Assembly: GCA_032164295.1 (NCBI GenBank) | Contig: JAJHTX010000003.1 | Span: 434,001-498,000 of the forward strand | Direction of reading: 5' to 3' | DNA length: 64,000 bases | Origin: Inonotus obliquus | Lineage: Eukaryota; Basidiomycota; Agaricomycetes; Hymenochaetales; Hymenochaetaceae | Part shown: positions 5,646-64,000 of the stretch, piece after piece | How the letters are laid out: every line of letters begins with the position of its first letter | Position numbering within the stretch: the first letter of the stretch is position 1 | The notes under the pieces: generated by a model | Told to the model about the DNA's origin: nothing | Databases searched by the model: none | What the model saw: the letters and a program-made list of their open reading frames with translations, nothing else | Made by a program: the position numbers and the translations under genes

Positions 5646-6484
5646 TCCTCACCACTTTCACCACCATCTAATCTAGCACCACAATGCACTTGTTCATTCT
5701 GTTGCTTCTTTGGTGTAGGCCCCCCCAAGAGCTGCTCATAGAATCCAGGTAAACTTCCATCAAATGGATGGAATCTCCTCCTTTCCAGAAATGATCAATG
5801 CACCGTACGTGATAATTCTCTTCTGACTCCACAAACCGATCCAGACTTCCTGTATGTTCGGAAGAATGGCCAGCTGTCCGACTTCGCCGCTCTCATTGAT
5901 ACGTTCCAATGTCATGAGTCTCTCGAGCCCACATAGCGAGTCTAATCAATTGCGTGCAAGGTTAAGGACGAGTATCCGTCCCAACTTGGTGTAAATACCC
6001 AGGACAAAGTCAATCATGGCGGGCTCATCTTAAATCTGTCGGGGTTTTTGGCAAACGTGGCGTGCAAGTATGAGCGATGCAAAGGCAATAGCGGAAGGCG
6101 AGAATTTGATGAAGTCGCAATAGAAAAGGGTAACTTCCATGAGAAATTTTGCAACATGCTGAACCTTTATACTCTCTCCAGACGAGCCACAGCAATAGAA
6201 CCAAAGTCAAGCTTCTGCAGTTGGATGATCCAACGTCCACTGAATGGTAGCAAGAATGTGTCCTTCCATCTGGATGAAGGCGGATTCGTCATAGGTATCA
6301 CGGCAGATCCCAACCAGGTCGGTTGAAGTTAGCACGTGTTCTTTCGTGTCCTCGAATTTCGCTGCTATCCACAACGCTGCACAACCAACTGATTGGTAAT
6401 ACTCCGTGTACATGATACGACGCGAAACATATCGGTCGACAATGTTCATGGTAAGGTAAAAAGTCTCAGGACGAAGTTGGAAGG

Positions 6485-8178
6485 TGAAAGGATTGTGCTG
6501 AAATTTTGATTCGATTAGGAACACCAATCGAAACTACCCCGGATGGGACCGGTTAATTTCACTAGCCGGAGACGATCAGGATCAACAGCAAGAAGCAGAG
6601 AACACGCAAATCTAATACAACCCGAAGCCGACGATCAAGAAGCATCGGCTAGCAACATTAATCCCGACGATCACACTAAACCTTCACAAACGATGCAGCA
6701 AGTACAGCAACCTCCAATGGCTTGCTACAAATGCAGAATGGTGTGAAAGACCATTGAAGACCTACACAAGATAATACTACGGGAAGCAGCGAACATGTAT
6801 ACATATCATGTGTCCTGCGAACGAGCAACAGCTTATCGAGAATACCACAATCCCCCGGAGGTCATTCGAAATCGCACAAGGTCAACAATAGCAATGGATA
6901 CGGCAATAGGCATGCAACCAAAGACACACTGGACAATAGTAGGAATCCACGACATAATAGCACTCGAGTGCCCAAGCACATTCGTGGAGATCAGTGCAGA
7001 CTATGTTACAAACTGCCGATCACCAGTAACAGCGGCATGGGTTGCAAACACACTCAGAGAACTAGGGGCATACTGCAAAACCATTCGACTACAAGGAAAC
7101 CTATACCTAGGCTGGAGAATACCTTCGAACAATACTCGACAAAGTGTACGGCTACTCATCGCCATAGGCAACTATGTCAAACCACCTTGGTTTCCCTACG
7201 ATGAGATCCGATGTCGAATCACACTTGACGGCCCCGAACAAGAGTCCCGAAGTGACAAGCAAATCACAGCCTTCATAGCCCCAGATGCTACACAACGGAA
7301 CCCCGACGGAATTCCTTAAATACACGAGCAACTGCGGACGAGCGAACTCTAACTACGGCACAGCCATGCAAAACCAATGGCATATGAACATGCATTCAAT
7401 GACTCACTCACTGACTCACTCTATGCACAGGGCACAGTACAAGACTGACCCCGAGCACAGGTTTCAATTCAGTTTTGAGTCAAGATGAGTCAACGCCGAG
7501 TCATCGCCTTGCACAGTGCGCAGTCGATGAGTAAACCCGCAGCAGAACAATAGGAATACCAGACGAGTTAGAAAGCTAGAACAACAAATCAGATTGAGAG
7601 CAGGAACTATGGAGCGTAGGAAGTGGTCCGTCCACAACATGAGGAAAAGGTATAAATAGTTGTAGACTTAGACCATAGCTCCCCATCTTTCTTTCGATCC
7701 TCTTGTACACCGAGTCCTCTTAGGCATCTAGCTTCTAATCTGAAGACCACCTAATCTGCTTAACCTCTCTTACTCTACGGCGTGAAATGATTGATTAGTC
7801 GCCCACCGACTGGAGAAGCTTGTGAATGGCAACCTACCTGTTTTAGCTGGGTACTTGTCCTACTAGCCTGTCAACGAGGTTGAGGCCCAACTTGGTTAGT
7901 TAAACGTGAGCGTTCGAGACAACACTTAGTACACTTGGGAATCTGCCCCATTGAGGCTCCGGAAACTCTTGGAATAGCACCGTCGAACCTGTAACACTGG
8001 TTAACCTCTACCTGGAAAGCGTCTGAGGCAACATCTAGTATACTTGGGAATTTGCCCTGCTTGTGAAAACCAAGTAGGCTCCAAAAACCCTTAGAAAAAT
8101 GTTGTCAAATCTGTAACCAACCGGACCACCCTATTGTGGTTACTGTATAGTCCCTTTAGGGCGAGCGTTTTTCTAACA
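6485..8178 (+). mobile_element. Solo LTR, family A, copy 1 (1694 bp)
   Basis: Starts TGAAAGGATTGTGC and ends GCGTTTTTCTAACA. Perfect 5-bp duplications GAAGG lie outside it (6480-6484; 8179-8183). A TATAAATA box is at 7651-7658, so the segment upstream of it is U3-like. It aligns over its whole length with 14,403-15,968. It differs by an internal duplication of about 130 bp (CTTGGGAATCTGCCC occurs twice, near 7935 and 8045), which explains the extra length. It is inserted in the cyclin box. Confidence 0.88.
6543..7319 (+). pseudogene. LTR-internal reading frame, copy 1 (interrupted)
   Basis: Same frame as the 258-codon ORF at 14,461-15,237 and highly similar along its length, but stopped by TGA at codon 68, where the other copy has CGA. 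After the stop the frame stays open to the shared end (IQRNPDGIP-like terminus). The family is not recognised. A Cys-x-x-Cys pair (CYKC) lies near residue 62. The C-to-T character of the stop fits repeat decay in fungi. Confidence 0.6.
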
Positions 8179-13197: not shown

Positions 13198-14402
13198 ATG
13201 GGCTTAATTCTGCGATTCTACCGCTTCTTCCAATTAACAATACTTCTGCGGTTCTACCGCTTCTTACTTCTCTTCGGACCACAGTACTTCTGCCGTCCTA
13301 TCTACGCCTGCGGTTCCAACAAAGTACAAGGCTTCTGCGATTCGACAAGGCTAAGAACAATTGAGAACTGGTCCACTTCTGCGCCAATACCGAATCACCA
13401 ATCCCTACGCCCGTCTTCCATCACAGTACCGAACCACCAGACTTCGATACCGATGATACCGATACCGTACCGTCCACCCATCCTGATACCGACGATTAAT
13501 AGTCCGCGTCTAGTCGATACTACGCCCTCGACAGCCCATACCAGAGGAAAAGGCTCACAAAGCTGCAATCGGTCTGCCATACGTTGCTGCGAAGAGTTGG
13601 ATCATGGTCGAAGCTCCAAGTCCGACGGTATGCCCTTCCGAACCGCCATGCATCGATACCGACGATACCGGTGTTGATACCGATGGTCCGCTCCGGTACC
13701 GGAGTTCGTAACGTGTGCTAGGTCGAGACCACGCCCTCGGAGATCTACATCGAGAGGAAGGTTGGGAAATGAATCAAGTCCGCCGTACGCTGCTTCGATC
13801 TCGGAGGAGGCCATCGATCCGACTCGGAGGGGAAGCCAAGCAATGCCCAGTCGAGTCAGGCAATGCGTACCGATCGATATCGAGGGGCTCGAGCGATCTC
13901 GTTGATGCTCAGGGACGATCCCAGGGTACTGATTGGTACCGAGCGGTAGAGTACCCCATTGCCAAGGTTGGGTTGTACCGACACGTCAACATCGGAGCAC
14001 GCCGTCCGATCGGTCGGTAGACGCCCAGACTGACGCCGCACGGATCATGATACCAGAACAAAGGTAAATCAGGATGACGTGCTTCTCCTACGACAGGGAC
14101 ATCGCCAGGAGCGCCCATGCGGTAGCTTAAGACACGTCCTTATTTTAGCGCTGGTCGACGTCGGTATCGCCGCCCTACCTCGGTATCACTCGTCGTGAGT
14201 TTTCATTGGGTTCTTGTCTCGTCCCACCCTATTCTTAGCTACCCCCTGATAAAACTTCTTATTCATTCATCATCTTATGTTTCCCCTGATTATAATTTTA
14301 CATTCAATTCGACTTTATGTTCCATTTCTTGTACCGGATTACGGTACGATTCGACTTGTAAAAACCCCCCATTTGGTATCTTGAATGGCTACGGTATTAT
14401 GG
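13198..14402. repeat. Minisatellite and GATACC-rich repeat, left part
   Basis: From 13,200 to 13,330 the unit CTTCTGCGGTTCTACCGC recurs in variants. From about 13,380 to 14,180 the motifs GATACCG, GGTACCG and TCGGTATC recur. The sequence is interrupted by LTR A2 at 14,403 and resumes at 15,974. The overlapping open frames are low-complexity products of the motif. Confidence 0.55.
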
Positions 14403-15968
14403 TGAAAGGATTGTGCTGAAATTTTGATTCGATTAGGAACGCCGATCGAAACTACCCCGGATGGGACCGGCTAATTTCACTGGCCGGAGACGATCAGGAT
14501 CGACAGCGAGAAGCGGAGAACACGCGAATCTAATACAATCCGAAGCCGACGATCAAGAAGCATCGGCTAGCAACGCTAATCCCGACGATCACACTAAACC
14601 TTCGCAAACGATGCAGCAAGTACAGCAACCTCCAACGGCTTGCTATAAATGCAGAAGAGTGCGACAGATCATCGAAGACCTACACAAGATAATACTACGG
14701 GAGGCAACGGGCATGTTGACATATCATGTGTCCAGCGAACGAGCAACAGCTTATCGAGAATACCACAATCCCCTGGAGGTCGTTCGAAATCGCACGAGGT
14801 CAACAATAGCAATGGATACGGCAATAGGCATGCAACCAAAGACGCACTGGACAATAGTAGGAATCCACGACATATTAGCACTCGAGTGCCCAAGCACATT
14901 CATGGAGATCAGTGCAGACTATGTTACGAACCGCCGCTCACCGATAACAGCGGCATGGGTTGCAAACACACTCAGGGAACTATGGGCATACTGCAAAGCT
15001 ATTCGACTACAAGGAGACCTATACCTAGGCTGGAGAATACCTTCGAACGATACTCGACGAAGTGTACGGCTACTCATCGCCATAGGCACATACGTTAAAC
15101 CACCTTGGTTTCCCCACGATGATATCCGATGTCGAATCACACTTGACGGCCCCGAACAAGAGTCCCGAGGCGACAAGCCAATTACAGCCTTCATAGCCCC
15201 AGATGCTATACAACGGAACCCCGACGGAATTCCTTAAATGCACGAGCAACTGCGGACGAGCGAACTTTAACTACGGCGCAGCCATGCAAAACCAATGGCA
15301 TACGAACACGCATTCAATGACTCACTCACTGACTCACTCTATGCACAGGGCGCAGCACAAGGCCGACCCCGAGCATAGGTTTCAATTCAGTTCAAGTCAA
15401 GATGAGTCAACGCCGAGTCATCGCCTTGCACAGGGCGCAGTCGATGAGTCAATCCGCAGCAGAACAATGGAATTACCAGACGAGTTTGGAAGCTAGAATA
15501 ATGAATCAGATCGAGAGTAGGAACTACGGAGCGTAGGAAGTGGTCCGTCCACAACATGAGGAAAAGGTATAAATAGTTGTAGACTTAGACCGTAGCTCCC
15601 CATCTTTCTTTCGATCGTCTTGTACATCGAGTCCTCTTAGGCATCTAGCTTCTAATCTGAAGACCACCTAATCTGCTTAACCTCTCTTACTCTACGGCGT
15701 GGAACGATTGATTAGTCGTCCACCGACTAGGGAAGCTTACGAACGGCAGTCGACACTGTCCTACTAGTCTGTCAACGAGGTTGAGGCCCGACTTGATCAG
15801 CTAAACGAAAACGTCTGAGGCAACGCTTAGTATACTTGGGAATCTGCCCTGCTTGTGAAAACCGAGTAGGCTCCGGAAACTCTTAGAAAAGCATCGCCGA
15901 ATCCGTAACACTGAGGCCGTCCTATTGTGGTTACTGTATAGTCCCTTTAGGGCGAGCGTTTTCTAACA
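14403..15968 (+). mobile_element. Solo LTR, family A, copy 2 (1566 bp)
   Basis: Starts TGAAAGGATTGTGC and ends GCGTTTTCTAACA, with perfect TATGG duplications at 14,398-14,402 and 15,969-15,973. TATAAATA lies at 15,568-15,575. It is collinear with copy 1 and visibly close in sequence. Because each copy has its own duplication, these are two independent insertions and not the two ends of one element. Confidence 0.9.
14461..15237 (+). CDS. Uncharacterised 258-aa protein encoded inside an LTR
   Basis: An uninterrupted frame starts at ATG 14,461, only 58 bp inside the LTR start. It ends at 15,237, upstream of the LTR's own TATA box at 15,568. The N-terminal third is hydrophilic and Ser/Thr/Gln-rich, with a basic start (SRRRSGSTARS-like) and a CYKC pair near residue 62. 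The remainder looks globular, with several Trp and a KPPWFP turn. No signal peptide or membrane segment is seen. The same frame is present but stopped in LTR A1. I do not recognise the family; it could be a retroelement accessory protein or a captured sequence. Transcription would need a promoter other than the downstream LTR TATA box. Confidence 0.5.
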   Translation: MGPANFTGRRRSGSTARSGEHANLIQSEADDQEASASNANPDDHTKPSQTMQQVQQPPTACYKCRRVRQIIEDLHKIILREATGMLTYHVSSERATAYREYHNPLEVVRNRTRSTIAMDTAIGMQPKTHWTIVGIHDILALECPSTFMEISADYVTNRRSPITAAWVANTLRELWAYCKAIRLQGDLYLGWRIPSNDTRRSVRLLIAIGTYVKPPWFPHDDIRCRITLDGPEQESRGDKPITAFIAPDAIQRNPDGIP

Positions 15969-17599: not shown

Positions 17600-18228
17600 T
17601 CATTTTGATCGTACCCAATCATCAAAGTTCGACTCTGCCGCTTCCCACACACGTTCCCAATCGAAACAATCGGTACGCGTGGTGTATGGTAATACCGCGC
17701 GCCCACCATACTCGCTGCGAACCATTTCAAGATGGGAATCTGCACCACATGTCAAACTTTCCCGCAGGTAGTTCAGGCAGAAATGCGTATCTGAAGCGGG
17801 TGGAGTGATCGGATTCGCCAGTGCCTCACGAAGGGTAGATAGACACGAAAGTTGGTGAAACATTGCGAGTCGGTATGCCCTGACATTGCTGGATCGTTGG
17901 TCACGGAAGACGACGCCGCTGCCCCTCGGAAGGCTCGATTCCCATTCGGCGGCTCCAATGTCAGTTTCGATATGATAGTGAACGCTTTCTTCCGGCGTCA
18001 AAGCTGCTGCGCGCAGACCCGGAACTAGCCATTCAGTACCCCTAACAGAAGAAATACCCGCTATACATAATAGAACAGGTGAATTTTCAGGACACAGGTT
18101 TAACAAGGACGGCGAGACGTACAGGAATGGTATGAGCCAGCGCGTACCGTATAATAGACGTTTATGAGAGTAATCACGGCGACAACGACGGAGATGCATG
18201 TACGGTCGCGAAAATATTTCTCAGTCAT
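17600..18228 (-). CDS. UstYa-like (DUF3328) protein with altered metal motifs
   Basis: Two exons (18,228-18,123 and 18,060-17,600; 62-nt GT-AG intron) give 188 aa. The N-terminus (MTEKYFRDRT) precedes one membrane helix, VVVAVITLINVYYTV, as in the type II topology of this family. UstYa proteins act in or on the secretory pathway and oxidise ribosomal peptides. They normally carry two HxxHC motifs. Here the first reads HQLSC and the second THFCLNYLRE, so the second histidine of motif 1 and the standard spacing of motif 2 are changed. The following SLTCGAD block is normal. The protein may be inactive, structural, or have changed chemistry. It faces the repeat island and shares the strand with the RidA-like gene. 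Confidence 0.7.
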
Positions 18229-18834: not shown

Positions 18835-18975
18835 GGTGCGTGTGCTGAAGGGTGCTAACTAACTAGAGTCTGTATATACTTACGTTCTTGAAGGTTTTGA
18901 TTGTGATAAGGTAAGCATGCCGTTCTTCTCTTACTCCTTTCCTTGTATCTTTCCTTCCCTTTTTGTTGACCAACG

Positions 18976-19929
18976 ATGCAGCGATCTTCTCAAGCGGATG
19001 CTCAGCGCTATGCCCTCCTTCCAACCGATGAGCTGGGCGTCGAGCCTAAAGAACTCGTAGGAGAGGTGAACGTTCATCACGGGTTGTTCAGTCCTCTCTG
19101 GATGCGATTGTGGGCCATCGCGAGCGTCATTCTTGCGGTCCTGTCTTATTTCGTACCCAACCCAGCCTCACCGACGGCGCCACCGGTCTTCTCTTCTCGC
19201 GCTGCTCGTCTTGCATATGCGGCGACTCTACCTCGACCTTCGATGTACATAGGTCTTTCACGTTTAAATCGCACCACGGCACTTGCCGCACTCCCAGACG
19301 AAGTCACATACTTCCCGCACGTATTTGCTCCCGTTTCGCGCTTGGAGCCCAACAAAGTTTGGCCTACGGATGGCCATGAGCGGCGTACTTTCAACGGCGT
19401 TGTCTCTCCGGGCGAGCCACATGTGGTCATTGATGGCTCCAGTGGAACCAGTATGATTATGCAATTTCGCGTCCAGGATTATGGGATGGAGCGATGTTCT
19501 ATCGCTGCGATCCTACCGCCCGCAGATGCTCAAATCGAAGTGCAAAACAGAACGCTGCTTCTCGGATCGGCTCGGATAAAGCTTGATATCTGGCGACTTG
19601 ACACCCGCGGAAATATGAAACTGGATCTCACCTCGCTTAATTGGAACACCCGACCCGCCCGGTCTTCCCTCATCGCAACTATCGATGCAGAAGAAGGCGG
19701 AGAGGTCCACACGTCTGAATTTGGCTGTGGAGCGTCTGGATCGCTGGAGACATTTGAGATTGCATGCTCAGAGCCTACTGAGAGGGCTGAAGGATGTAAA
19801 ATTGAGTTCTGGCAGGGACAACCAGAAGTAGTACCGAGAATGGGTAAGAATGCTTGTTTCCTTATCAAATCTTTCGTGACTAACACTACATTTGCAGCGT
19901 TCGTCGTCGTTCAAAAGCCATCCTTGTAA
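18976..19929 (+). CDS. Single-pass membrane protein, basidiomycete family of unknown function
   Basis: The ATG at 18,976 gives a hydrophilic N-terminus, a membrane helix at about residues 40-60 (LWAIASVILAVLSYFVPN), then a long lumenal/extracellular part. This part has LSRLNRTTALAAL, a GEPHVVID strand, MIMQFRVQDYGMERCSI and a Cys-containing end (CKIEFWQGQP). The last intron is 54 nt (19,844-19,897), giving 299 aa in total. The strand pattern is reminiscent of the But2-type C-terminal fold seen in many basidiomycete membrane proteins, but this is memory-based and weak. It converges with the UstYa gene at 19,965 with only 35 bp between. Confidence 0.7.
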   Translation: MQRSSQADAQRYALLPTDELGVEPKELVGEVNVHHGLFSPLWMRLWAIASVILAVLSYFVPNPASPTAPPVFSSRAARLAYAATLPRPSMYIGLSRLNRTTALAALPDEVTYFPHVFAPVSRLEPNKVWPTDGHERRTFNGVVSPGEPHVVIDGSSGTSMIMQFRVQDYGMERCSIAAILPPADAQIEVQNRTLLLGSARIKLDIWRLDTRGNMKLDLTSLNWNTRPARSSLIATIDAEEGGEVHTSEFGCGASGSLETFEIACSEPTERAEGCKIEFWQGQPEVVPRMGKNACFLIKSFVTNTTFAAFVVVQKPSL

Positions 19930-19964: not shown

Positions 19965-20768
19965 TCACAGTTTTAATCCGTGATTGTGTCCGTGCCCATG
20001 CCCATGCTCAGTCTTATTCTTGTCCCATGGTGAGGTTATATTCCAACCACGTTTCCAATCGATATAATTCTTGCCAGCAAAGTCGAACAAAGCATTAGCA
20101 TCCCCGCACCTGCGCTCGATATCCATCCCCGTTTTAATCTCTATATCACGGACAAACTCCCTCGTGAAATCCTTCAAACCGTCCGACCTTTCGACTAGAT
20201 GGCCTCGCAACTCGTTTCGGAAGTCCGGAACAAGTGGTTCGAGTGTGCGATCGGCACGACACAGGATGGATTGACGCAAGTAGTTCATGCAATGATGCTG
20301 ATGGGGCCAGCTCACCCACTGTCCCGCGCCATAAGGATCGTCGAGATAGATGCGCATTTTCTCAATGCAATGTAACTGGTGGTAAAGCGCGACGCATAAC
20401 AAACGAGACTGTTCTCCCAATCGTACGAAGCCATAACCGGGAGGATAGATTGATTCCCATTGTTCAGACGCGGAGGGTCCGGAGATAGGAAATGTCGTTG
20501 GTTCAAGGTCGAATTTGCGTTTCGTGGGTGAAGTCGGGGAAGGGAGTGGGAGATGCTCTGGATAGTCATCACCGATGTAGGCTATGCACAGTCAGCGAGA
20601 TTTGTGCACCATCCCAAAGAAACATTATAGCTCACTGTAGACGTGCTCTTTTGATGCTGGTTCGCTGCCAATGAAGGCATCCCAACATCGAAGAGATAGA
20701 AGGGCTGCATTGACTATCGCACACAAAACGACAAGTGCATCGCAGAGCGTAGCTCGATTCGCCCGCAT
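19965..20768 (-). CDS. UstYa-like (DUF3328) oxidase
   Basis: Exons 20,768-20,636 and 20,581-19,965, joined over a 54-nt intron, encode 249 aa. An N-terminal membrane helix (about residues 8-25, LCDALVVLCAIVNAALLSL) is followed by YIGDDYPEHL and a Pro/Ser-rich linker. Both copies of the family metal motif are intact: YHQLHC (about 112-116) and HQHHC (about 138-142), followed by MNYLRQSILCRADRTLEP. Family members catalyse oxidative cyclisation of Kex2-released peptides in dikaritin pathways. The C-terminus is unusually His-rich (HGHGHGHNH). The repeat precursor at 21,784 is 1 kb away and divergently oriented. Confidence 0.88.
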
Positions 20769-21783: not shown

Positions 21784-22243
21784 ATGCAGCTCATCAGGTT
21801 CTTCGCTCTTGCCGTTGCTCTGTTCCCAGTAATCAGCGCAGTTCCTCTACCGGAGGCTGAAGTTGGTTCGTAACTTTCCGCAGCGTGATATATGTGCGCC
21901 ATCCCTGATATATTGCCTTCTCAGCATCACTGGAGCAAAGCTTCAAGCGTGCGCAGCTCGAACAGAGTTTCAGACGCGAAGCAGAGCTCGAGCAAAACTT
22001 CAAACGCGAAGCTGAGCTCGAACAAAGCTTCAAACGCGACGCCGCCGAACTAGAGCGGAGTTTCAAACGCGAGGCTGAGCTGGAGCAAAGCTTCAAGAGA
22101 GACGAGCTCGAGCAGTCTTTCAAAAGAGATGGTACGAGAATTTCTTGGTTGTGCAAAATATGGCATAGCGACTGATGATTTTGACCTCAGTCGAGCTTGA
22201 GCAGAGCTTTCGTCGCGCTGATGAACTAGAGGCCAGCTTCTAG
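21784..22243 (+). CDS. Secreted Kex2-type repeat precursor (LEQSF repeats)
   Basis: Three exons (21,784-21,865, 21,925-22,131, 22,191-22,243) encode 113 aa. The first 19 residues (MQLIRFFALAVALFPVISA) are a signal peptide. After VPLPEAEV come nine copies of the core LEQSF (variants LEQNF, LERSF, LEASF). The first eight each end in Lys-Arg or Arg-Arg, and the last ends at the stop. The residues after the dibasic site are often EAE or DE, recalling the Kex2 plus Ste13 processing of yeast alpha-factor. The design, a secreted, tandemly repeated short core with dibasic linkers, matches fungal Kex2-processed repeat proteins and dikaritin precursors. It has UstYa genes on one side and a transporter on the other. 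Exon 1 uses a GTTCGT donor, chosen because it alone joins the repeat frame. Confidence 0.85.
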
Positions 22244-46879: not shown

Positions 46880-48777
46880 ATGATTGATACACTTCCGATT
46901 GCTTCGTCTCTTTTGGGGCCATCTCATCTCTTCGTATGCCTGACGTTGTTCATCCTTCTTAAGCTTGTAATCGTCTTCGTTGGATACTTCAAAGCACGTC
47001 GTCAGTTTCCGGGACCTCCCATTTCAAGTATATGGTTCGGAAATCTCGCAGAGACCATGTCCGACGATGTCCATGAAAAATGGAGGGCATGACATAGAAA
47101 GTATGGCCCGATCTATCAGACAGTCAGTGCTTTTCGCAACATGGCTACTCAAAGACTGACCTCGAGGAATTGCCATAGTGGAATGGCATTTTCTCCCGCG
47201 TAGTCTACGTCGGAGATCCACGCGTTGTCTCCAAGATCGCGAACAGCAACTGGCCGAAGATGCCTGTTCAATATGCAGGCTTCAAGCCGTTGAGCGGTTC
47301 GGCGCTGTTTGCGCAGATGGACCAAGAGAGGTGGAAACTCCAGCGTAAAGGGCTGGCCCCAGCCTTCCAACCGCAGACAGTCAACGAGCAGTATCCAACC
47401 TTGCAGAAGTACCTTACGGTAAGCATTCATCTTACTCAAAGGATGCATTACTGAGAACCATCCCCTCGCAGAGATTCATAGAGATCATTGACGAAGCTGC
47501 CAAGCGAGACACTCATGTTGACATGTCAACTCTAGACGTCCTCCTAACTCTAGACTTTGTCGGTGAAGTAGCCTTCGGCACCGAGTTGCACGCGATGCGC
47601 GACGGAGAGAACTGCCGCATCTTGCAGATATTCCAAGAGGTCTTGCCTGAACTGATGAAGTGCGGTCTTTTCCCGCTTCGTTCCAAGATTCCGATCATGA
47701 AGAGTACGAGATTGATGCATCGTGGTATAACGGATCTACGCACGATGGCCCGTGCTGCTGTGCGGAATGCTAGAGCAGCGGATGATAAGTTTATGAAGGT
47801 CGAATCGGGAAGCAAGAGGATATACGAAATACTTTCCCAGTAAGCTCGGTACACTGATGTCTAACTCCCGGATTATAATGTTATTAGGCAAAGGGGAGCC
47901 GATGGCGAATATTTATTTACAACTGATGAATTGGTGGATAATTATGGTAAGATACTCGACACCGTGGTGAAACAAGCTAATACTTTCTGTCAAGTCACTT
48001 TCCTGGTGGCAGGCGGTGATCCTACGGCCCATGCCATCACCTTCGCTATTTACGAAGTGGTAAATAACTTCGATATGTAGACTTTCTTTGGACTCACCGG
48101 TCCCATTGATTTGTAGCTGAAAAAGTCCGCTGTGCTATCAAAACTCCAAGCTGAACTCGACGAATTGTTGCCTCAAGACTGCGAAGTCCCGACGGTTGAG
48201 CAAGTATCCAGACTGAGATACCTTCACTTGATTATCAAGGAGATACTTCGTTTCAACGGTCCCGGGTTCGGTACTTTCCGATACACCTCGAACGAGATGG
48301 AAATCAACGGATTCAAGATTCCCGCGAACACCACTCTTGCGTTATGGAATCCCCAAGGTAAAGAACAAGCATATTCTTTTTATTTGTCTTCCTTCTAACA
48401 TATCGGCAGTACACCGCGATCCTCAGTTGTGGGGCCCGGACGCGGACGAGTTTAATCCAGATCGTTGGCTTGCGAAGGACGGGCAAACTGCGTTGAATGG
48501 ATCCAGGTTCATCCCTGCTCCAGGCTCGTATTTCCCATTCTCTTATGGACCTAGAAAATGCCTGGGTAAGCTTATTGTTCACTCATTGAGGTAGTCATCA
48601 CTGAACCAACTTTCAATAGGGGAAGGTCTGGCGATTCTTGAAATGTCGTTGACATTGGCCACGCTGTTCAAGCGCTACGATCTTTCATTGCCAGAGGGAT
48701 ACGCTATGGAGTTCCTTCCGTCCTTCACGTTATGCTCCAAAAATGGTTTACCAGTCAAAGCACGCCTGAGGATATAG
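46880..48777 (+). pseudogene. Cytochrome P450 with an in-frame stop in exon 1
   Basis: The frame from ATG 46,880 gives a membrane anchor (LFVCLTLFILLKLVIVFVGY) and PGPPISSIWFGN. At 47,090-47,092 a TGA sits between KWRA and HRKYGPIYQT, where P450s have a Trp codon (TGG). The rest is complete: RFIEIIDEAAKRD, DFVGEVAFGTELHA, the I-helix as FLVAGGDPTAHAITFA (normal AGxDT altered to AGGDPT), ExxR as KEILR, FNPDRW, and the haem loop FSYGPRKCLG with its Cys ligand. It ends at 48,777. A single G-to-A nonsense change, a read-through, or a sequencing error would each explain it. Confidence 0.8.
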
Positions 48778-52908: not shown

Positions 52909-54550
52909 TCAGAAGCGACGTCCAGCGTTCGTGAGACGGTCAACTGAACCAGCATTCGTCAGTTTGTCGACAGAACCAGCATTCGTCAACGCGTCGACGG
53001 AACCGGCATTGGTCAGCGCGTCAACCGAGTCCGCACGTCGAGCCTTCGCATTCGTCAGTTGGTCAACAGACCCGGCGTTCGTCAATGCATCGACGGAGCC
53101 GGCGTTGGTCAGCTTGTCAACAGAACCGGCATTCGTAAGAAGGTCAACCGAGTCGGCCCGGCGGAAACGAGCATTCGTCAGTTGGTCAACCGAGCCGGCA
53201 TTTGTCAACGCGTCGACAGAACCAGCGTTCGTCAAAGCGTCAACCGACCCTGCATTGGTGAGACGGTCAACTGAACCTGCATTGGTGAGTTGATCAACCG
53301 AATCTGCACGGCGCAGCTTCGCATTCGTCAATTGGTCGACAGAACCCGCGTTCGTCAGCTTGTCAACTGAGCCGGCATTTGTGAGCAGGTCGACCGAGTC
53401 AGCCCGGCGGAATCTGGCATTCGTCAGTTGGTCAACTGATCCAGCGTTCGTCAATGCGTCAACGGAGCCGGCGTTGGTCAGCTTGTCAACGGAACCAGCA
53501 TTCGTAAGAAGGTCAACCGAGTCGGCCCGGCGGAAACGAGCATTCGTCAGTTGGTCAACCGAGCCGGCATTTGTCAATGCGTCGACAGAACCAGCGTTCG
53601 TCAGTGCGTCAACCGAGCCTGCATTGGTGAGTCGGTCGACTGAACCCGCATTGGTGAGTTGATCAACTGAGTCTGCACGACGCAGCTTCGCATTCGTCAG
53701 CTGGTCGACCGAACCAGCGTTCGTCAAAGCGTCGACGGAGCCGGCGTTGGTCAGCGCGTCAACAGAACCGGCATTGGTCAGCGCGTCAACCGAGTCGGCC
53801 CGGCGAAATCTCGCATTCGTCAGTTGGTCAACCGAGCCGGAGTTGGTCAACTGGTCAACGGATCCGGCGTTGGTCAACCGGTCAACCGAACCTGCATTCG
53901 TGAGTGCATCAACAGAGTCGCTTCTCTATATGGTAGGAGAAACTATTCAGTCACATTCAGATCTCTAATTGAGAGGTGGGAGTATACCTTTGCATTTGTT
54001 AGCTGGTCGACAGAGCCAGCATTCGTGAGCCGATCAACGGACCCAGAATTCGTCAATTGGTCAACGGACCCGGCATTGGTGAGAGCATCAACACCAGAGT
54101 TCGTCAGCTCATCGACAGAGCCAGACCTCTGAAGTATGCCAAACGCATTAGTCTCACACCCTTGCTTGTATTACCAAGACAAACCTTTGCATTCGTGAGT
54201 TGATCAACGGAACCCGCGTTGGTCAGAGCATCAACGGAGCCTGCGTTAGTGAGGCGGTCAACGGAGCCAGCATTCGTAAGCTGGTCAACCGAGCCACTTC
54301 GACGGAACCTGGCGTTCGTGAGTTGGTCGACCGAACCCGCGTTAGTCAATGCGTCAACGCTGCCCGCATTCGTGAGCGCATCGACCGAACCAGCATTCGT
54401 CAACTGGTCCACACCCTGTGTGCGAGTCATTCGTCAGTAACTACAACGGGAACTACACTTAACATGAAGGGCACGAACCTGAGCAGGGGCGGCCATCGCG
54501 GTTGACGCGAAGACAAGAGCGGAGGCAACAAAGATGGCGTTGAACTTCAT
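52909..54550 (-). CDS. Secreted repeat precursor of GSVDxLTNA units (left copy)
   Basis: Four exons (54,550-54,479, 54,415-54,185, 54,128-53,988, 53,925-52,909) give 486 aa. All are in phase 0 and each is a multiple of three. Exon 1 is a signal peptide, MKFNAIFVASALVFASTAMA, plus APAQ. The rest is about 46 copies of a nine-residue unit, G/D-S-V-D-x-L-T-N-A, with x mainly Q, A, R, K or L. Groups of three to five units are separated by RFRR, KLRR or KARR. Two Lys-Arg sites are created only by splicing (exon ends ...NAK, next begins RS). It ends GRRF. The dibasic sites suggest Kex2 cleavage to 30-50 residue repeat peptides. Each could be a ribosomal peptide core or a structural/surface peptide. 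The UstYa gene at 56,217 is its divergent neighbour. There are no Tyr or Trp and almost no other aromatic residues, unlike known dikaritins. Confidence 0.88.
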
Positions 54551-56216
54551 GGTGGACAAGTTAGAATGACTATGTGTAGAGCGCTCTGCTGGCTTTCTGA
54601 GGAGTCGCTGGGGTACTCAAGCAGAATTTATAGCAGAGACTTTTCGTGCGTCCTTTCTTGCATTTTCGAACATAATCCTTGGTGTATGGTGGAGATGCCG
54701 TTTGTGGTTGCAGTATTGTTTTCCTCCTTTCTCCGCCGATTGGATCGTTTGGAAAAACATTAGAACGGCGGGAAGAACCAGATATCTTCAAGGAGCTTGC
54801 ATAGCAGAGTAGCTCAGAAGAACTTCTATAGGATGCGAGTAGCCAGCCCTTCTGTGAGCATAAGGTGATGTGAGCACCCCATTCAATATGTGGAGAGCGC
54901 ATAGGGTATTTCCGGTAACATCTTGCGCATAACAAAACGCAAACAACTAATAGAAGAACTTCCGCTATTATTAGACCCCGAGACCTAGAACATACTGGTA
55001 ATCAGGGTCGCGCGGAAGGCAGCAGACTGCGGCAGGAAGCGCTTGCACCTTCGCTTTTATCGAAAGCGTCATATTCAAGGTCATTCGCTACGCGTTCAAA
55101 TGACAGGATGCAGTATGACGAGCATTTCATCCCAGTCCCTTGATGCGCCGAGCGAGTATAGCAGATGCTGAGGACCGAAAGAGCCGATAGCATCAAAGAT
55201 TGGCTACATCACGAAGCGCATCGGCACCTTTGACGATCGGAATGCGCAATGGGCCATCATCTTCCATGTCCTCTTTTCCTCGGAGATATGATGGGCTGAT
55301 GAGGAAATAGACGATCGAGTTGAAAGACCCGCCGAGTCTGACCTCTCACATAGAGAAACTTCCATGCACCTGGTGGCCAACCGCGTGGGACGTGCTCCAC
55401 ATGTATTTGCACACCGCCTGTATACAGTGGTCTGAGTCTGGGAAGCGCCGTGGAGTTTTGCAGTACTTTTGTTGAGATCATGAGTGGGGTTCACCTTAAT
55501 TCGTTAAATTCTATCATTCACCACATCCTACAAAGACCCATGCGGTCGACAACATTTCACGTCTTCTCGTTATCAGGGCCTTTCTTCTACCAGGTGCTTG
55601 AGAGCGAGGCCGATGTTTCGCTTCCAGAGAAAAGAGATGGCGAGCAGCTGGTGTGAAGAAATAGAGAGAGGGGGCAATAGTGACATCAGAGTCAGATACA
55701 CTTCACTCGATTATGTAATGGCTCACGATCACTTGACACTCTGCTGGCAGTTAATTATTAATAATATTAAATTAAAGCACCCACAACATTCAGTCCCGTT
55801 TATGTGATTTAGAATTTGGCGACCATGATTGATGAGAAGGCTTCCCAGGTGCGAGTTTCTTTCTCTGCTATCCACGTAGAGTGCTTTCTCCGCTTGGACC
55901 GGGTTTCCCTTGCTTTCGAAAGTCGTAGCGGTGATATCTCGCTTGCTTTAGGAAATAGGGAGCAAACTTCCTTGACATGCAAATTCTATAAGGCCTTCCA
56001 AAAGATGTCATCTTAGCATGGTGGTTGTGCAGAAGCAGCTTGGACTCCTATCGCGGAACATAACTTATCCTACAACCGAGTTTATGAACAAACGGGCAGT
56101 AGACGGACTTCTCAGCTTGCATCCTGAACTCTGAGATTCTAAAACTTGCTCACAGTCCCACATACTACAAGTGCCCCCACAAGTATCACTCTCAGTGACT
56201 GCAAAACATCTGCACC
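54551..56216. promoter_or_regulatory. Bidirectional intergenic region, left copy
   Basis: 1.67 kb between the start codons of the precursor (minus) and UstYa (plus), so both promoters lie here. About 220 bp next to the precursor ATG and about 300 bp next to the UstYa ATG resemble the right-hand copy with many substitutions. A TATAAATT motif lies upstream of the precursor at about 54,627-54,634 (minus strand). The centre (about 54,800-55,700) shows no recognisable gene. Confidence 0.5.
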
Positions 56217-57207
56217 ATGGGAAATCACGAAGATGTCGACTACCGCCCGCTCATGTCGGGAAGCGATGAGGGAATCGACGAGGTCGAAGCCCTGCGACCT
56301 CGCTGGAGCCGGACGCTGACCAGCTCGCCGTGGCGTCGCCGCGCATTGATTGCAATTTTCGTCTTCCAGACGCTCCTCAACGTCATCCTCGTCGGTTCCG
56401 GTCTGTATCTGTACTCACGCAGGGGGCCGTCGAACCCGATCTTCCCTCAACTCACCTATTGTGAGCATCGTATCAGAGTGTCCATACTGTGTTCCGTGCT
56501 GACCAGCGAAATACTCGAACAGCACCAGCACAGGACGTGATCTCGTTCAAGGTCCATGAGTTCTACGAGGGATTTGGAGAGAACATCACCATATACCAGA
56601 AAGATCCCTCCGATGAGGTCGACAAAGCATGGGAGGACCTCTACAGTTGTAGGTGCAGACACATTCTGTGTTCTTGTCCAGTGTTGCTCACGATGTGTCT
56701 CAGTTGGCATTTCAGAGATCCCCAGGAGGACGGCAGAGAAGCTGACCAACAAGACCTATCCGCTTGTCGGTTCCGGAGGAAACTACATCGTTGAGCTTGA
56801 TGTATTCCACCAGCTTCACTGCCTTGTTAGTACCTCTGGCCTGTTCCTTCCTTTATCAATGTCTCACCCGTCCCGTCGTGCAGAACACGTTGAGAATGGC
56901 GCTCTCTCCGGAATACTACATGAAGAAGGACCTGACGGACCTTGAGCGATCTTTCCTCGAGGCCCCTCATGCTCGTCACTGTCTCGATGCCATCCGTCAG
57001 TCCTTGACGTGCAATGCAGACATTTCCACGTACGTCTGGCACTGGGACCCAAGGGATGAGATGGTCAAGCCGACAGGCAACGTCGTCCACACGTGCAAGG
57101 ATTACGACAGGATTGTCCAATGGGCGAGAGAGCACCATCTCCACTCGCCATTCGATAACAAGATATACGTTGAGGACGACCTCGAGGTTCCTATCATCTA
57201 TGCGTAG
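56217..57207 (+). CDS. UstYa-like (DUF3328) oxidase, left copy
   Basis: Exons 56,217-56,460, 56,523-56,648, 56,704-56,825 and 56,884-57,207 give 271 aa. A cytosolic N-terminus (MGNHEDVDYRPLMSGSDEG) precedes a membrane helix at about 43-66. Then come YSPAQDVISFKVHEFYEGFG, YSFGISEIP, and both family motifs in standard form, FHQLHC (159-163) and HARHC (193-197), with LDAIRQSLTCNADISTYVW after. The C-terminus is TCKDYDRIVQWAREHH. Intron 1 was placed to keep TYSPAQDV in frame. UstYa proteins are copper-type oxidases of dikaritin biosynthesis by family knowledge. Pairing with the GSVD-repeat precursor suggests that peptide as substrate (inference). Confidence 0.92.
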
Positions 57208-57570
57208 GACTTAACTGACGATTTTGGTGCCCTTAGTATTTTTAGTGGAAGTTTGTAGATAATTGGAAAGCGTGTTTCTGTTCAACGAATCTTGTACTTA
57301 TAGGCTACACAAAGACACAAAGCAAGTTGTTGCACCTCTTTCTGTGTTGGCGGGTTTGAGATTTTCATCGAAAAATCTACCTCAATTTGTGGTCCGTGAA
57401 TCGAACATGTCTCCAGGCAGACAAAGAAACTCTGATAGTCGAGCTAAACGTACTTATACAACGTCGACTCATCTTCCGCTCCTCAAGTCCAGTTCTGTTT
57501 TCTTCTAAGTCATACAAAGATCTAACTAACATCAACTGGTAGTCACATTCTACATTTTTCTAGTGCCTCG
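57208..57570. other. Intergenic, convergent genes
   Basis: Between UstYa and threonyl-tRNA synthetase stops. No feature recognised. Confidence 0.4.
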
Positions 57571-60666: not shown

Positions 60667-60916
60667 GTCCCGCGTCGCGTGGAAAGGACCAGGAAGGAAA
60701 GAGACAGCTAAGCAGTTTTACGTAATACTCGTGCTCAAGACAAGTCACATTATTTGGTCATATTTGATTGTTCGGCAAAAACTTCAAAGAAAGGTTCATC
60801 CACCATGCTACTAAACTAATGTTACATGCACTCCGAAGTACTTTTCTCATGAAATCAACGGCTACAAGCTTCAACCTACACCGATAGCCATACTGGTTTG
60901 CGGATTCAGCGAAGAC

Positions 60917-61907
60917 CTATGCGTGGATAATGGGGACCTCGAGGTCGTCCTCAACGTATATCTTGTTATCAAATTGCGAGTGAAGATGGTTCTCTCTCGC
61001 CCATTGGACAATCCTGTCGTAATCCTTGCACGTGTGGACGACGTTGCCCGTCGGCTTGACCATCTCGTCCCTTGGGTCCCAGTGCCAGACGTACGTGGAA
61101 ATGTCTGCATTGCACGTCAAGGACTGACGGATGGCATCGAGACAGTGACGAGCATGAGGGGCCTCGAGGAAAGATCGCTCAAGGTCCGTCAGGTCCTTCT
61201 TCATGTAGTATTCCGGAGAGAGCGCCATTCTCAACGTGTTCTGCACGACGGGACGGGTGAGACATTGATAAAGGAAGGAACAGGCCAGAGGTACTAACAA
61301 GGCAGTGAAGCTGGTGGAATACATCAAGCTCAACGATGTAGTTTCCTCCGGAACCGACAAGCGGATAGGTCTTGTTGGTCAGCTTCTCTGCCGTCCTCCT
61401 GGGGATCTCTGAAATGCCAACTGAGACACATCGTGAGCAACACTGGACAAGAACACAGAATGTGTCTGCACCTACAACTGTAGAGGTCCTCCCATGCTTT
61501 GTCGACCTCATCGGAGGGATCTTTCTGGTATATGGTGATGTTCTCTCCAAATCCCTCGTAGAACTCATGGACCTTGAACGAGATCACGTCCTGTGCTGGT
61601 GCTGTTCGAGTATTTCGCTGGTCAGCACGGAACACAGTATGGACACTCTGATACGATGCTCACAATAGGTGAGTTGAGGGAAGATCGGGTTCGACGGCCC
61701 CCTGCGTGAGTACAGATACAGACCGGAACCGACGAGGATGACGTTGAGGAGCGTCTGGAAGACGAAAATTGCAATCAATGCGCGGCGACGCCACGGCGAG
61801 CTGGTCAGCGTCCGGCTCCAGCGAGGTCGCAGGGCTTCGACCTCGTCGATTCCCTCATCGCTTCCCGACATGAGCGGGCGGTAGTCGACATCTTCGTGAT
61901 TTCCCAT
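60917..61907 (-). CDS. UstYa-like (DUF3328) oxidase, right copy
   Basis: Same four-exon structure and the same length (991 bp start to stop, 271 aa) as 56,217-57,207, in mirror orientation. Introns are nearly identical too. The only protein differences I see are near the C-terminus: WARENHLHSQ versus WAREHHLHSP, and PIIHA versus PIIYA. Both HxxHC motifs are intact. Similarity stops abruptly after the stop codon. It is divergently paired with the right-hand precursor. Confidence 0.92.
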
Positions 61908-63597
61908 GGTGCAGATGTTTTGCAGTCACTGAGAGTGATCGTTGTGGGGGAACTTGTAGTATGTGGGTTTGTGAGCAATTTTTTGAATCTCAGAGTCCAG
62001 GATACAGGCTAAGAAATCCCGTCTACTTCTCGTTCGTTCATAAGTGCGGTTGTAGGATAGGAATACGTCAATACAGTGATGGGAACAGTTTTCAAAACAT
62101 TCGCCTATTCTGGTTTCTCTGAGCAAGATGTGCACTAGAACCAGAGGGCCTTCTTGAAGACCCTGCAGGGATAAACAGGCAGAACTTCGCTCTCCATTGC
62201 CTGACGCGAGTGAAATATCGCCGCTGCGGTCACGCAGACACTGGTTTGAACAGTTCGGAAATAACGGATAGTGGATGTTCTGTGCTTGGTTTGAACAATT
62301 GAGAAAACTTCTCGCATGGAGCACATGGAGCACGGTTCTCCAAGGTAGGGGCGGAACCAGGCCTAGAAAGCAAAAGTCAAAATCAAGTAGTAAGTAATGG
62401 CACTGACAAGTGTGAGACTGTACATGTGAGTTTTACTGGACTGGTAAAGTGTGATCCTGGATCGCGTGATCGCAATCTAAACTTGAGGGCCGGCTCCCGA
62501 TTCCACATGTTTCATTTTACCTTGTTCATCGACTTGACTTTGCTCGTCATACGAGTTTCCTGACAGTAATCCGCTTGGCTTTCAGGCTCGATCAGGATCA
62601 ATCAGATGGCGAAAGAGATGTATTTGGGAAGCCAGGCGTTGTGTGATGCAGGGCCTGGACGATTCAAGGAGGCTCCTTCATCTCAAGAAAAAATGCCGTG
62701 AAGAAGAGCAAAAATGCTGTCCATCCCCATCCATGGGAACTCGGGCTCATGCGGTCCATGATGTGGAGCATGCCTCACGCGTGGCAGCGCATCTTCCTTC
62801 CTTTTTAGGTTCGAACTCTTAACCACTGACTGAAAAACTCTCACTTCCGCATCAAGTTTCGCTATTCCCGAGGAACTTCAGGAAGCTGATGGTGCGGAAC
62901 GTCATCCGAGTGTCAAAGCTACCGGTGCGCTTCGGGATGCACACTATCTTTGATGATCATGGTTCCCTTGCTATTCGGGCTGAGGATGGGTAGATCCCCC
63001 GCCGTACAACCAAAGAGATAGGGCGAGTACTCGTAATTATCATCGCTTTAAGTCCACTTGTTCATCAGGTCTATCATGCTTTCACCATGTGCACCTATCT
63101 TACATGGCGAAAGTGATATAAAGAATGGCGTAGATTTTTCCAGTCATGACAGATTAAATCATCGCAGCCTTTAATGGCATACAAACTACACAAACGTTTC
63201 TCACATAAGTTCTTCCGCCCTTTTACGGTGGTTTAGTATCAAAGTGAGTGTTCTCCAAATATAGTTTGAGGGGCTCGCTTATCCTTCTTCGCCAATTTGA
63301 TGATGGAATAGTCAGCCGCTCGGGTCGGAGAGAAGTTCTCCTGAGCTACTCTGCTATGCAAGATATCTGGTTCTTCCCGCCGTTCTAATGTTTTTCCAAA
63401 CGATCCAATCGGCGGAGAAAGGAGGAAAACAATGGTGCAATCACAGTCAGCATCTCCACCATATACCCAGGATTATGTTCGTAAATGCAAGAAAGGACGC
63501 ACGAAAAGTCTCTGCTATAAATTCTGCTTGAATACCCCAGCGACTCCTCAGAAAGCCAGCAGAGCGCTCTACACATAGTCATTCTAACTTGTCCACC
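61908..63597. promoter_or_regulatory. Bidirectional intergenic region, right copy
   Basis: 1.69 kb between the UstYa (minus) and precursor (plus) start codons. It resembles the left copy next to each gene but with many substitutions and indels. A TATAAATT motif precedes the precursor at about 63,516-63,523. The middle (62,350-63,350) shows no recognisable gene. Confidence 0.5.
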
Positions 63598-64000
63598 ATG
63601 AAGTTCAACGCCATCTTTGTTGCCTCCGCTCTTGTCTTCGCGTCAACCGCGATGGCCGCCCCTGCTCAGGTTCGTGCCCTTCATGTTAAGTGTAGTTCCC
63701 GTTGTAGTTACTGACGAATGACTCGCACACAGGGTGTGGACCAGTTGACGAATGCTGGTTCGGTCGATGCGCTCACGAATGCGGGCAGCGTTGACGCATT
63801 GACTAACGCGGGTTCGGTCGACCAACTCACGAACGCCAGGTTCCGTCGAAGTGGCTCGGTTGACCAGCTTACGAATGCTGGCTCCGTTGACCGCCTCACT
63901 AACGCAGGCTCCGTTGATGCTCTGACCAACGCGGGTTCCGTTGATCAACTCACGAATGCAAAGGTTTGTCTTGGTAATACAAGCAAGGGTGTGAGACTAA
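63598..64000 (+). CDS. Secreted GSVDxLTNA repeat precursor (right copy, cut by window end)
   Basis: Exon 1 (63,598-63,669) encodes the signal peptide; a 63-nt intron follows; exon 2 (63,733-63,963) encodes eight repeats and one RFRR site. Both exons, the first intron and the visible start of the second intron match the left copy base for base as far as I can compare. The remaining exons lie beyond the window. Confidence 0.9.

What the first reader, a model, noticed from the sequence alone, without database searches (positions are those of the whole stretch)
52909..57207. Divergent pair: Kex2-type repeat precursor and UstYa oxidase, a candidate new peptide system
Seen: a secreted 486-aa protein of about 46 nine-residue GSVDxLTNA units cut into groups by RFRR/KLRR/KARR/KR, sharing an intergenic region with a UstYa gene whose two HxxHC motifs are intact. 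Known: in dikaritin pathways (ustiloxin, phomopsin, asperipin) Kex2 cuts repeat precursors and UstYa proteins cyclise the cores. Unusual: the cores lack Tyr and Trp, and each Kex2 fragment holds three to five units of a Ser/Asp/Thr/Asn repeat. The chemistry may therefore differ from known dikaritins, or UstYa may act on another substrate.
Basis: partly seen in the sequence, partly recalled or inferred. Interest (0 to 1): 0.92.

Follow-up and report, generated by a model that had tools for sequence, protein, structure and literature searches.

The report
Duplicated fungal repeat-peptide and oxidase pair
A bracket-fungus-like genome carries several side-by-side pairs of a gene for a repeat protein that looks secreted and cut into peptides and a gene for a copper-type oxidase, pointing to modified peptides of a broadly known sort but with unusual, tyrosine-free building blocks in two of the precursors.

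Summary
KEP A (54550-52909, -, 486 aa, 46 units) and UstYa A (56217-57207, +, 271 aa, both HxxHC motifs) are divergent genes. The pair is not single: a second pair forms an inverted repeat (60917-64995, past the window end) and a diverged third lies at window-equivalent 65277-68464, its UstYa apparently broken. A KEP with different units (21784-22243, LEQSF) also stands divergent from a UstYa gene. Copies A and B are 100% identical over 664 bp (precursor) and 872 bp (oxidase) while most of the region between no longer aligns, suggesting gene conversion of both genes. In KEP A, 46 of 46 units keep V-D-x-L-T-N although they form 38 DNA variants. The third precursor has 14 cut sites for 20 units and Tyr before 10 of 15 ends, so the Tyr-free fused units of A and B vary a conventional design. 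KEP plus DUF3328 is a known kind (1758 of 7878 KEPs; 103 of 1680 in Basidiomycota, PMC7329392), and a DUF3328 enzyme hydroxylates an aliphatic carbon (PMC12435403). No product is shown; cyclisation is unproven.

The parts
52909..54550 (-). KEP A, Kex2-type repeat precursor, 486 aa; introns 54478-54416, 54184-54129, 53987-53926
54551..56216 (.). intergenic region (1666 bp) shared by KEP A and UstYa A
56217..57207 (+). UstYa A (DUF3328/PF11807), 271 aa, HQLHC and HARHC; introns 56461-56522, 56649-56703, 56826-56883; long N-terminal helix (38-68) in the model of its Sanghuangporus relative
60917..61907 (-). UstYa B, second copy, 268 of 271 residues identical to UstYa A
63598..64000 (+). KEP B, first 403 bases; the gene runs on to window-equivalent 64995 (L009:598-1995), 404 aa, 38 units
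53952..54615 (.). 664 bp 100% identical between copies A and B (KEP 5' part and start of the intergenic region)
56185..57056 (.). 872 bp 100% identical between copies A and B (most of UstYa)
21784..22243 (+). KEP D, different precursor, 113 aa, nine LEQSF-type units each ending in Phe before KR/RR or the stop; introns 21866-21924, 22132-22190
19965..20768 (-). UstYa D1, divergent from KEP D, HQLHC and HQHHC (start and single intron read by eye)
17603..18220 (-). UstYa D2, open frame only (no gene model made), metal motifs degenerate (HQLSC, DTHFC)

Best explanation
KEP A and UstYa A are the precursor and modifying oxidase of a ribosomal peptide family of the KEP/DUF3328 (ustiloxin-like) kind. 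The precursor enters the secretory pathway, Kex2 cuts after RR/KR into pieces of 30-48 residues holding 3 to 5 nonapeptide units, a carboxypeptidase such as Kex1 trims the basic ends, and the lumen-facing UstYa enzyme, with a two-copper HxxHC/HxxHC site, oxidises side chains of the repeat. Shown here: gene structures, cut-site sequences, intact motifs, constraint on the units, repeated divergent pairing, identical tracts in both genes. Inferred: secretion, cutting, that this UstYa acts on this KEP, and the reaction (hydroxylation or cross-linking at an aliphatic or polar residue, or at the Phe beside a cut site).
For: Three related divergent KEP/UstYa pairs and a fourth with a different precursor within about 51 kb. 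The 13 UstYa matches in the 36 Mb genome group, by my reading, into nine genes (the tool calls its counts lower bounds). Copies A and B are identical over parts of both genes while most of the intergenic region does not align; the 11 codon differences between UstYa A and B all lie in the last 50 of 271 codons. V, D, L, T, N kept in 46 of 46 units with 2.6 of 5 codons differing silently per pair. The eight His/Cys positions checked are kept in 54 or 55 of 55 aligned sequences (UstYa A plus 54 chosen from the 120 hits listed of 291). Two P_proprotein matches, the domain of Kex2-type proteases, lie in the genome. In the published survey the DUF3328 count peaks at the position next to the KEP gene (PMC7329392).
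Against: UstYa C looks broken beside an open KEP C, so the partner is not strictly needed there unless UstYa A or B serves it. The three related pairs descend from one and are not independent. A KEP-like array on contig 10 (98 kb) has no UstYa match on that contig. Peptides measured from agaricomycete KEPs were linear or minimally modified (PMC9769878). No orthologous secreted KEP was found in other species.
Confidence: 0.6

Rival explanations
1. The KEP A/B peptides stay linear; UstYa A and B modify another substrate, most likely the Tyr-bearing peptides of KEP C.
For: KEP C has units such as GNSVDELTNY-KR with Tyr before 10 of 15 cut or terminal ends, closer to the usual design, and its own UstYa looks broken. 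Agaricomycete KEP peptides measured so far were linear or minimally modified (PMC9769878).
Against: Two intact copies of UstYa each sit beside A or B, and both genes of the pair share identical tracts between copies. KEP C units are under weaker constraint than KEP A units: 1.06 against 0 replacing differences per pair over five codons.
Confidence: 0.22
2. KEP A/B fragments are structural surface peptides like those of Rep1 of Ustilago maydis, perhaps oxidised or cross-linked by UstYa, coating hyphae rather than acting as small metabolites.
For: Inner fragments of 29-48 residues after trimming are near the 37 residues given for Rep1 peptides, which control hyphal wall properties (PMC6339444, passage).
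Against: No sequence link to Rep1 was tested. The single-sequence AlphaFold model of the array gives no fold (pLDDT 50.3, pTM 0.13), which neither supports nor excludes fibrils.
Confidence: 0.12
3. The array is a minisatellite or decaying gene and its place beside UstYa is coincidence.
For: A decayed copy of the array lies in what looks by eye like a transposon setting on contig 10, and a similar degenerate array is in a Fomitiporia protein without a clear signal-like start.
Against: Residues kept in 46 of 46 units with ample silent variation; three introns keep the frame; repeated pairing.
Confidence: 0.03

Closest known systems
KEPs with neighbouring DUF3328 genes (ust-RiPS type; PMC7329392, passages)
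   Same: signal-like start, repeats separated by KR/RR, DUF3328 gene next door
   Different: A/B have 3-5 uncut units per Kex2 piece and no Tyr or Trp; in Basidiomycota, where the survey found 103 of 1680 KEPs with such a neighbour
Dikaritins (ustiloxin, phomopsin, asperipin-2a)
   Same: repeat precursor plus UstYa; KEP C has Tyr at most unit ends
   Different: no tyrosinase match near by (nearest on the contig about 402 kb beyond KEP C); A/B lack the Tyr through which the known rings form; no product known
CctR, cyclochlorotine hydroxylase (PMC12435403, two of three parts read)
   Same: DUF3328, N-terminal helix, HxxHC(x)nHxxHC on two helices
   Different: acts on a non-ribosomal cyclic peptide; reaction here unknown
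Linear KEP peptides of Coprinopsis, Lentinula and Pleurotus (PMC9769878; abstract, discussion, passages)
   Same: agaricomycete KEPs cut by Kex2/Kex1
   Different: the main text has 0 occurrences of DUF3328; here a UstYa gene is adjacent

Membership tests
Kex2-processed repeat protein (KEP) | N-terminal secretion signal | tested here: inconclusive
   hydrophobic MKFNAIFVASALVFASTAMAAPA start read by eye; no signal-peptide predictor was run
Kex2-processed repeat protein (KEP) | repeated similar units flanked by dibasic sites | tested here: met
   46 units, 11 KR/RR sites in KEP A
UstYa/DUF3328 (PF11807) | match above Pfam cut-off | tested here: met
   177 bits against 25
UstYa/DUF3328 (PF11807) | two HxxHC motifs | tested here: met
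   HQLHC, HARHC; the same positions fall in helices 156-171 and 191-207 of the Sanghuangporus model
UstYa/DUF3328 (PF11807) | copper binding | not testable with these tools
   known for CctR (PMC12435403), not tested for this protein
Dikaritin | KEP gene accompanied by UstYa gene | tested here: met
Dikaritin | core with Tyr (aromatic ring used in ether cyclisation) | tested here: not met
   0 of 12 KEP A and 0 of 10 KEP B pieces hold Tyr or Trp; 10 of 15 KEP C pieces do
Dikaritin | cyclic modified product | not testable with these tools
   needs mass spectrometry
Dikaritin (ustiloxin/phomopsin branch) | tyrosinase in cluster | tested here: not met
   4 tyrosinase matches in the genome, none in or near the window; PMC7329392 names a tyrosinase as needed for ustiloxins and phomopsins

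The most novel reading that the evidence does not exclude
UstYa A/B act on fused arrays of three to five nonapeptide units that have neither Tyr nor Trp, joining or hydroxylating aliphatic or polar side chains once per unit and giving repeat-laddered peptides of about 30-48 residues, a product type not described for dikaritins in the passages read; the array arose from a conventional Tyr-bearing 12-residue unit (as in KEP C) by loss of the Kex2 site and the Tyr.
Probability: 0.18. Interest if true: 0.8.

Novelty: new variant of a known kind. Interest (0 to 1): 0.5.

Why it matters
[quoted passage not shown] Here one genome holds a natural series: a precursor with Tyr and a cut site after most units, and two with fused, Tyr-free units beside near-identical oxidases. 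Co-expressing each precursor with UstYa A would show directly whether a basidiomycete DUF3328 enzyme modifies KEPs and whether it needs an aromatic residue.

Tried and rejected
Protein database search with KEP C alone gave no match at E 0.01 among the 7995 candidates scored. With the A/B/C alignment, 3 of 7988 scored reached E 1: P0121 of Fomitiporia mediterranea (E 6.7e-19), by eye not an orthologous KEP but a 634-aa protein without a clear signal-like start carrying a degenerate SVDxLTNA array; P0122 (E 3.1e-5) and P0123 (E 0.28), unrelated-looking by eye. In both searches only the candidates sharing most words were scored, so relatives may have been missed.

Sequence search of solved structures for UstYa A gave one match, at E 0.97. 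Foldseek on the Sanghuangporus model gave 93 matches at E 10 and 0 at E 0.001. Single-sequence AlphaFold of the array gave no usable fold (pLDDT 50.3, pTM 0.13), so an RTX-like roll, a resemblance recalled, has no support. KEP B scored 31.2 bits for Pfam DUF6633, above that family's cut-off of 27 but with no stretch passing on its own; I put it down to composition, as with four weaker hits on KEP B and three on KEP C, all below cut-off. Full-text search for six unit strings found 0 papers; supplementary tables, where the 2020 survey lists its KEPs, could not be read. The contig 5 stretches were scanned with a simple 4-mer/dibasic filter and gave no repeat precursor. Co-occurrence in other fungi was not tested: the other whole genomes held are prokaryotic and neighbours of the database proteins cannot be fetched.

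My first unit count chose units by the very motif it then called invariant (44 units in A, 19 in C). I replaced it by a tiling of the whole array that leaves only linkers (46 in A, 38 in B, 20 in C); the numbers given are from that.

Full report
Where it is. The window is contig 3, 434001-498000, of an unnamed 36.07 Mb genome in 30 contigs. The closest database relatives of UstYa A are from Sanghuangporus vaninii (73% over the whole length) and Fomitiporia mediterranea (80% over 62%), both Hymenochaetaceae, so the organism is probably of that family or near it (inference).

The finding itself. KEP A runs 54550 to 52909 on the minus strand with three GT-AG introns of 63, 56 and 62 bases; the protein has 486 residues. 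Introns 2 and 3 lie between the Lys and Arg codons of KR sites. It has 46 LTN units, 44 of them SVDxLTN, in pieces of 3 to 5 units between dibasic sites. UstYa A runs 56217 to 57207 with three introns, 271 residues, HQLHC and HARHC, and matches Pfam UstYa at 177 bits.

Constraint. Tiling all of KEP A after the signal-like start leaves only linkers, so no diverged unit is hidden. V, D, L, T and N are kept in 46 of 46 units and S before V in 44 of 46; position x is free (Q, A, R, K, L, E). The units form 38 DNA variants of 46. Over the five kept codons two units differ silently at 2.6 on average and by a replacement at 0; only 510 of 2070 possible single-base changes in them are silent. KEP B is alike (38 of 38 units). 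KEP C is less strict: 20 units, 1.45 silent and 1.06 replacing differences per pair (all). Units of one array are not independent, as they spread by duplication.

The pair is repeated. An inverted repeat in the window links 56105-57218 to 60906-62019 and 54148-54788 to 63360-64000, each 98%. It holds UstYa B (61907-60917, 268 of 271 residues as in A) and KEP B, which starts at 63598 and ends at window-equivalent 64995 (L009:1995), 404 residues, 38 units. Further on lie KEP C (L009:4629-5464, window-equivalent 67629-68464, 257 residues) and, divergent from it, UstYa C (L009 about 3137-2277), which appears broken: a stop in the part aligned with the first exon of UstYa A, a change of frame near the first metal motif, and, by eye, that motif altered. 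A whole-genome search found one more place matching the array, at contig 10, 822 kb, a decayed stretch in what looks by eye like a transposon setting. The intergenic lengths are 1666, 1690 and 1491 bases.

Identical tracts. Aligned as inverted copies, A and B are identical for 664 bp (53952-54615) and 872 bp (56185-57056). Most of the intergenic region and the outer flanks show about 35-60% of aligned bases mismatched, which is no recognisable similarity; by blastn the intergenic regions of A and B share 277 bases next to the KEP (92%), 152 next to UstYa (87.5%) and a 51-base block (80%) between, besides two shorter matches of 21 and 12 bases; A and C share only 26 bases. The 11 differing codons of UstYa A/B all lie in the last 50 of 271 (chance about 3e-9 if spread evenly), and its three introns are identical. 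The simplest reading is an old duplication whose two genes are both kept alike by gene conversion (inference). An assembly fault is less likely, since a tRNA-synthetase-like gene lies between the copies and the arrays differ in length, but long reads were not seen.

What KEP C tells. Its typical unit has twelve residues, such as GNSVDELTNY-KR, and it shares with KEP A the signal-like start and the position of the first intron (coding base 73). It has 14 KR/RR sites for 20 units. Of its 15 ends (14 sites and the stop), 10 have Tyr, 3 His and 2 Asn just before. The A/B junction N-A-G-S corresponds to N-A-K-R-S-G-S minus three residues, so the uncut nonapeptide can be had from a cut twelve-residue unit by loss of nine bases; the direction is not shown. 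In A, Phe stands before RR at 5 of 11 sites.

A second locus. At 21784-22243 (+) lies KEP D, 113 residues, nine units of the type EAELEQSF-KR, divergent from UstYa D1 (about 20768-19965, HQLHC and HQHHC), with UstYa D2 beyond it, whose motifs are degenerate. Whole-genome searches with KEP A and with KEP D do not find each other. As I group the 13 UstYa matches into nine genes (lower bound), a second pairing within 2 kb is unlikely by chance (my rough estimate: about 0.1% per KEP). Against this, a KEP-like array DAEPLADTF-KR on contig 10 has no UstYa match on its contig.

Mechanism. In print: DUF3328 genes are enriched beside KEP genes (1758 of 7878; 103 of 1680 in Basidiomycota) and 65.6% of the repeats of such KEPs hold Tyr, so the rest do not (PMC7329392, passages). 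CctR is a membrane-bound, copper-dependent DUF3328 enzyme with two coppers at HxxHC(x)nHxxHC, which hydroxylates an aliphatic carbon using O2 (PMC12435403, parts 1 and 2 of 3). UstYa A keeps these residues; in 55 aligned sequences (UstYa A and 54 that I chose from the 120 listed of 291 hits) seven of the eight His/Cys positions checked are invariant and one is kept in 54. The model of the Sanghuangporus relative (mean pLDDT 76.4, pTM 0.61) has a long helix 38-68 and two helices, 156-171 and 191-207, that carry the motifs; no membrane predictor was run. Two P_proprotein matches suggest Kex2-type proteases. None of the 4 tyrosinase matches lies near. An MFS transporter frame lies next to KEP C (L009:5945-6976) and a P450 exon at 48232-48591; either could belong to a pathway (unproven). 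Pfam was run on 40 frames that I picked (37 of the window, 3 of L009), mostly longer ones, and on five whole proteins, not on every frame.

Verdict. A KEP/UstYa peptide locus, duplicated and maintained, of a known kind, with an unusual precursor form in two members. That UstYa A modifies the KEP A peptides is the likeliest reading (0.6) but rests on gene order, co-maintenance and family knowledge. Papers seen: PMC7329392 and PMC6339444 passages; PMC9769878 abstract, discussion and passages; PMC12435403 two of three parts; others only as search listings.

Noticed in passing
window 21784-22243 (+) with 19965-20768 (-) and 17603-18220 (-): Second KEP, with LEQSF units, divergent from a UstYa gene with both motifs, and a further UstYa frame whose metal motifs are degenerate.
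   Followed up: partly
G000:C5 2383.7-2386.7 kb and 2417.1-2420.0 kb (L012, L016): Two UstYa genes duplicated as an inverted repeat of 2.93 kb, about 97.4% identical, echoing the A/B arrangement; a simple filter found no repeat precursor in the 50 kb around.
   Followed up: partly
L032:74-613 (contig 10, 822 kb) and protein P0121: Degenerate SVDxLTNA arrays inside other reading frames here and in Fomitiporia; possibly captured by mobile elements.
   Followed up: partly
L034 (contig 10, 98.1 kb): Short array DAEPLADTF-[KR]R, a KEP-like frame with no UstYa match on the contig.
   Followed up: no
window 6483-8117 and 14401-15909: Direct repeats about 7.9 kb apart, 84-94% identical in pieces; the two long frames tested (6747-7316, 14437-15234) have no Pfam match.
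   Followed up: no
L009:2277-3137: UstYa C appears broken (stop and frame change) while its neighbour KEP C stays open.
   Followed up: partly
window 18970-19926 (+): But2-domain frame between the two UstYa genes D1 and D2.
   Followed up: no
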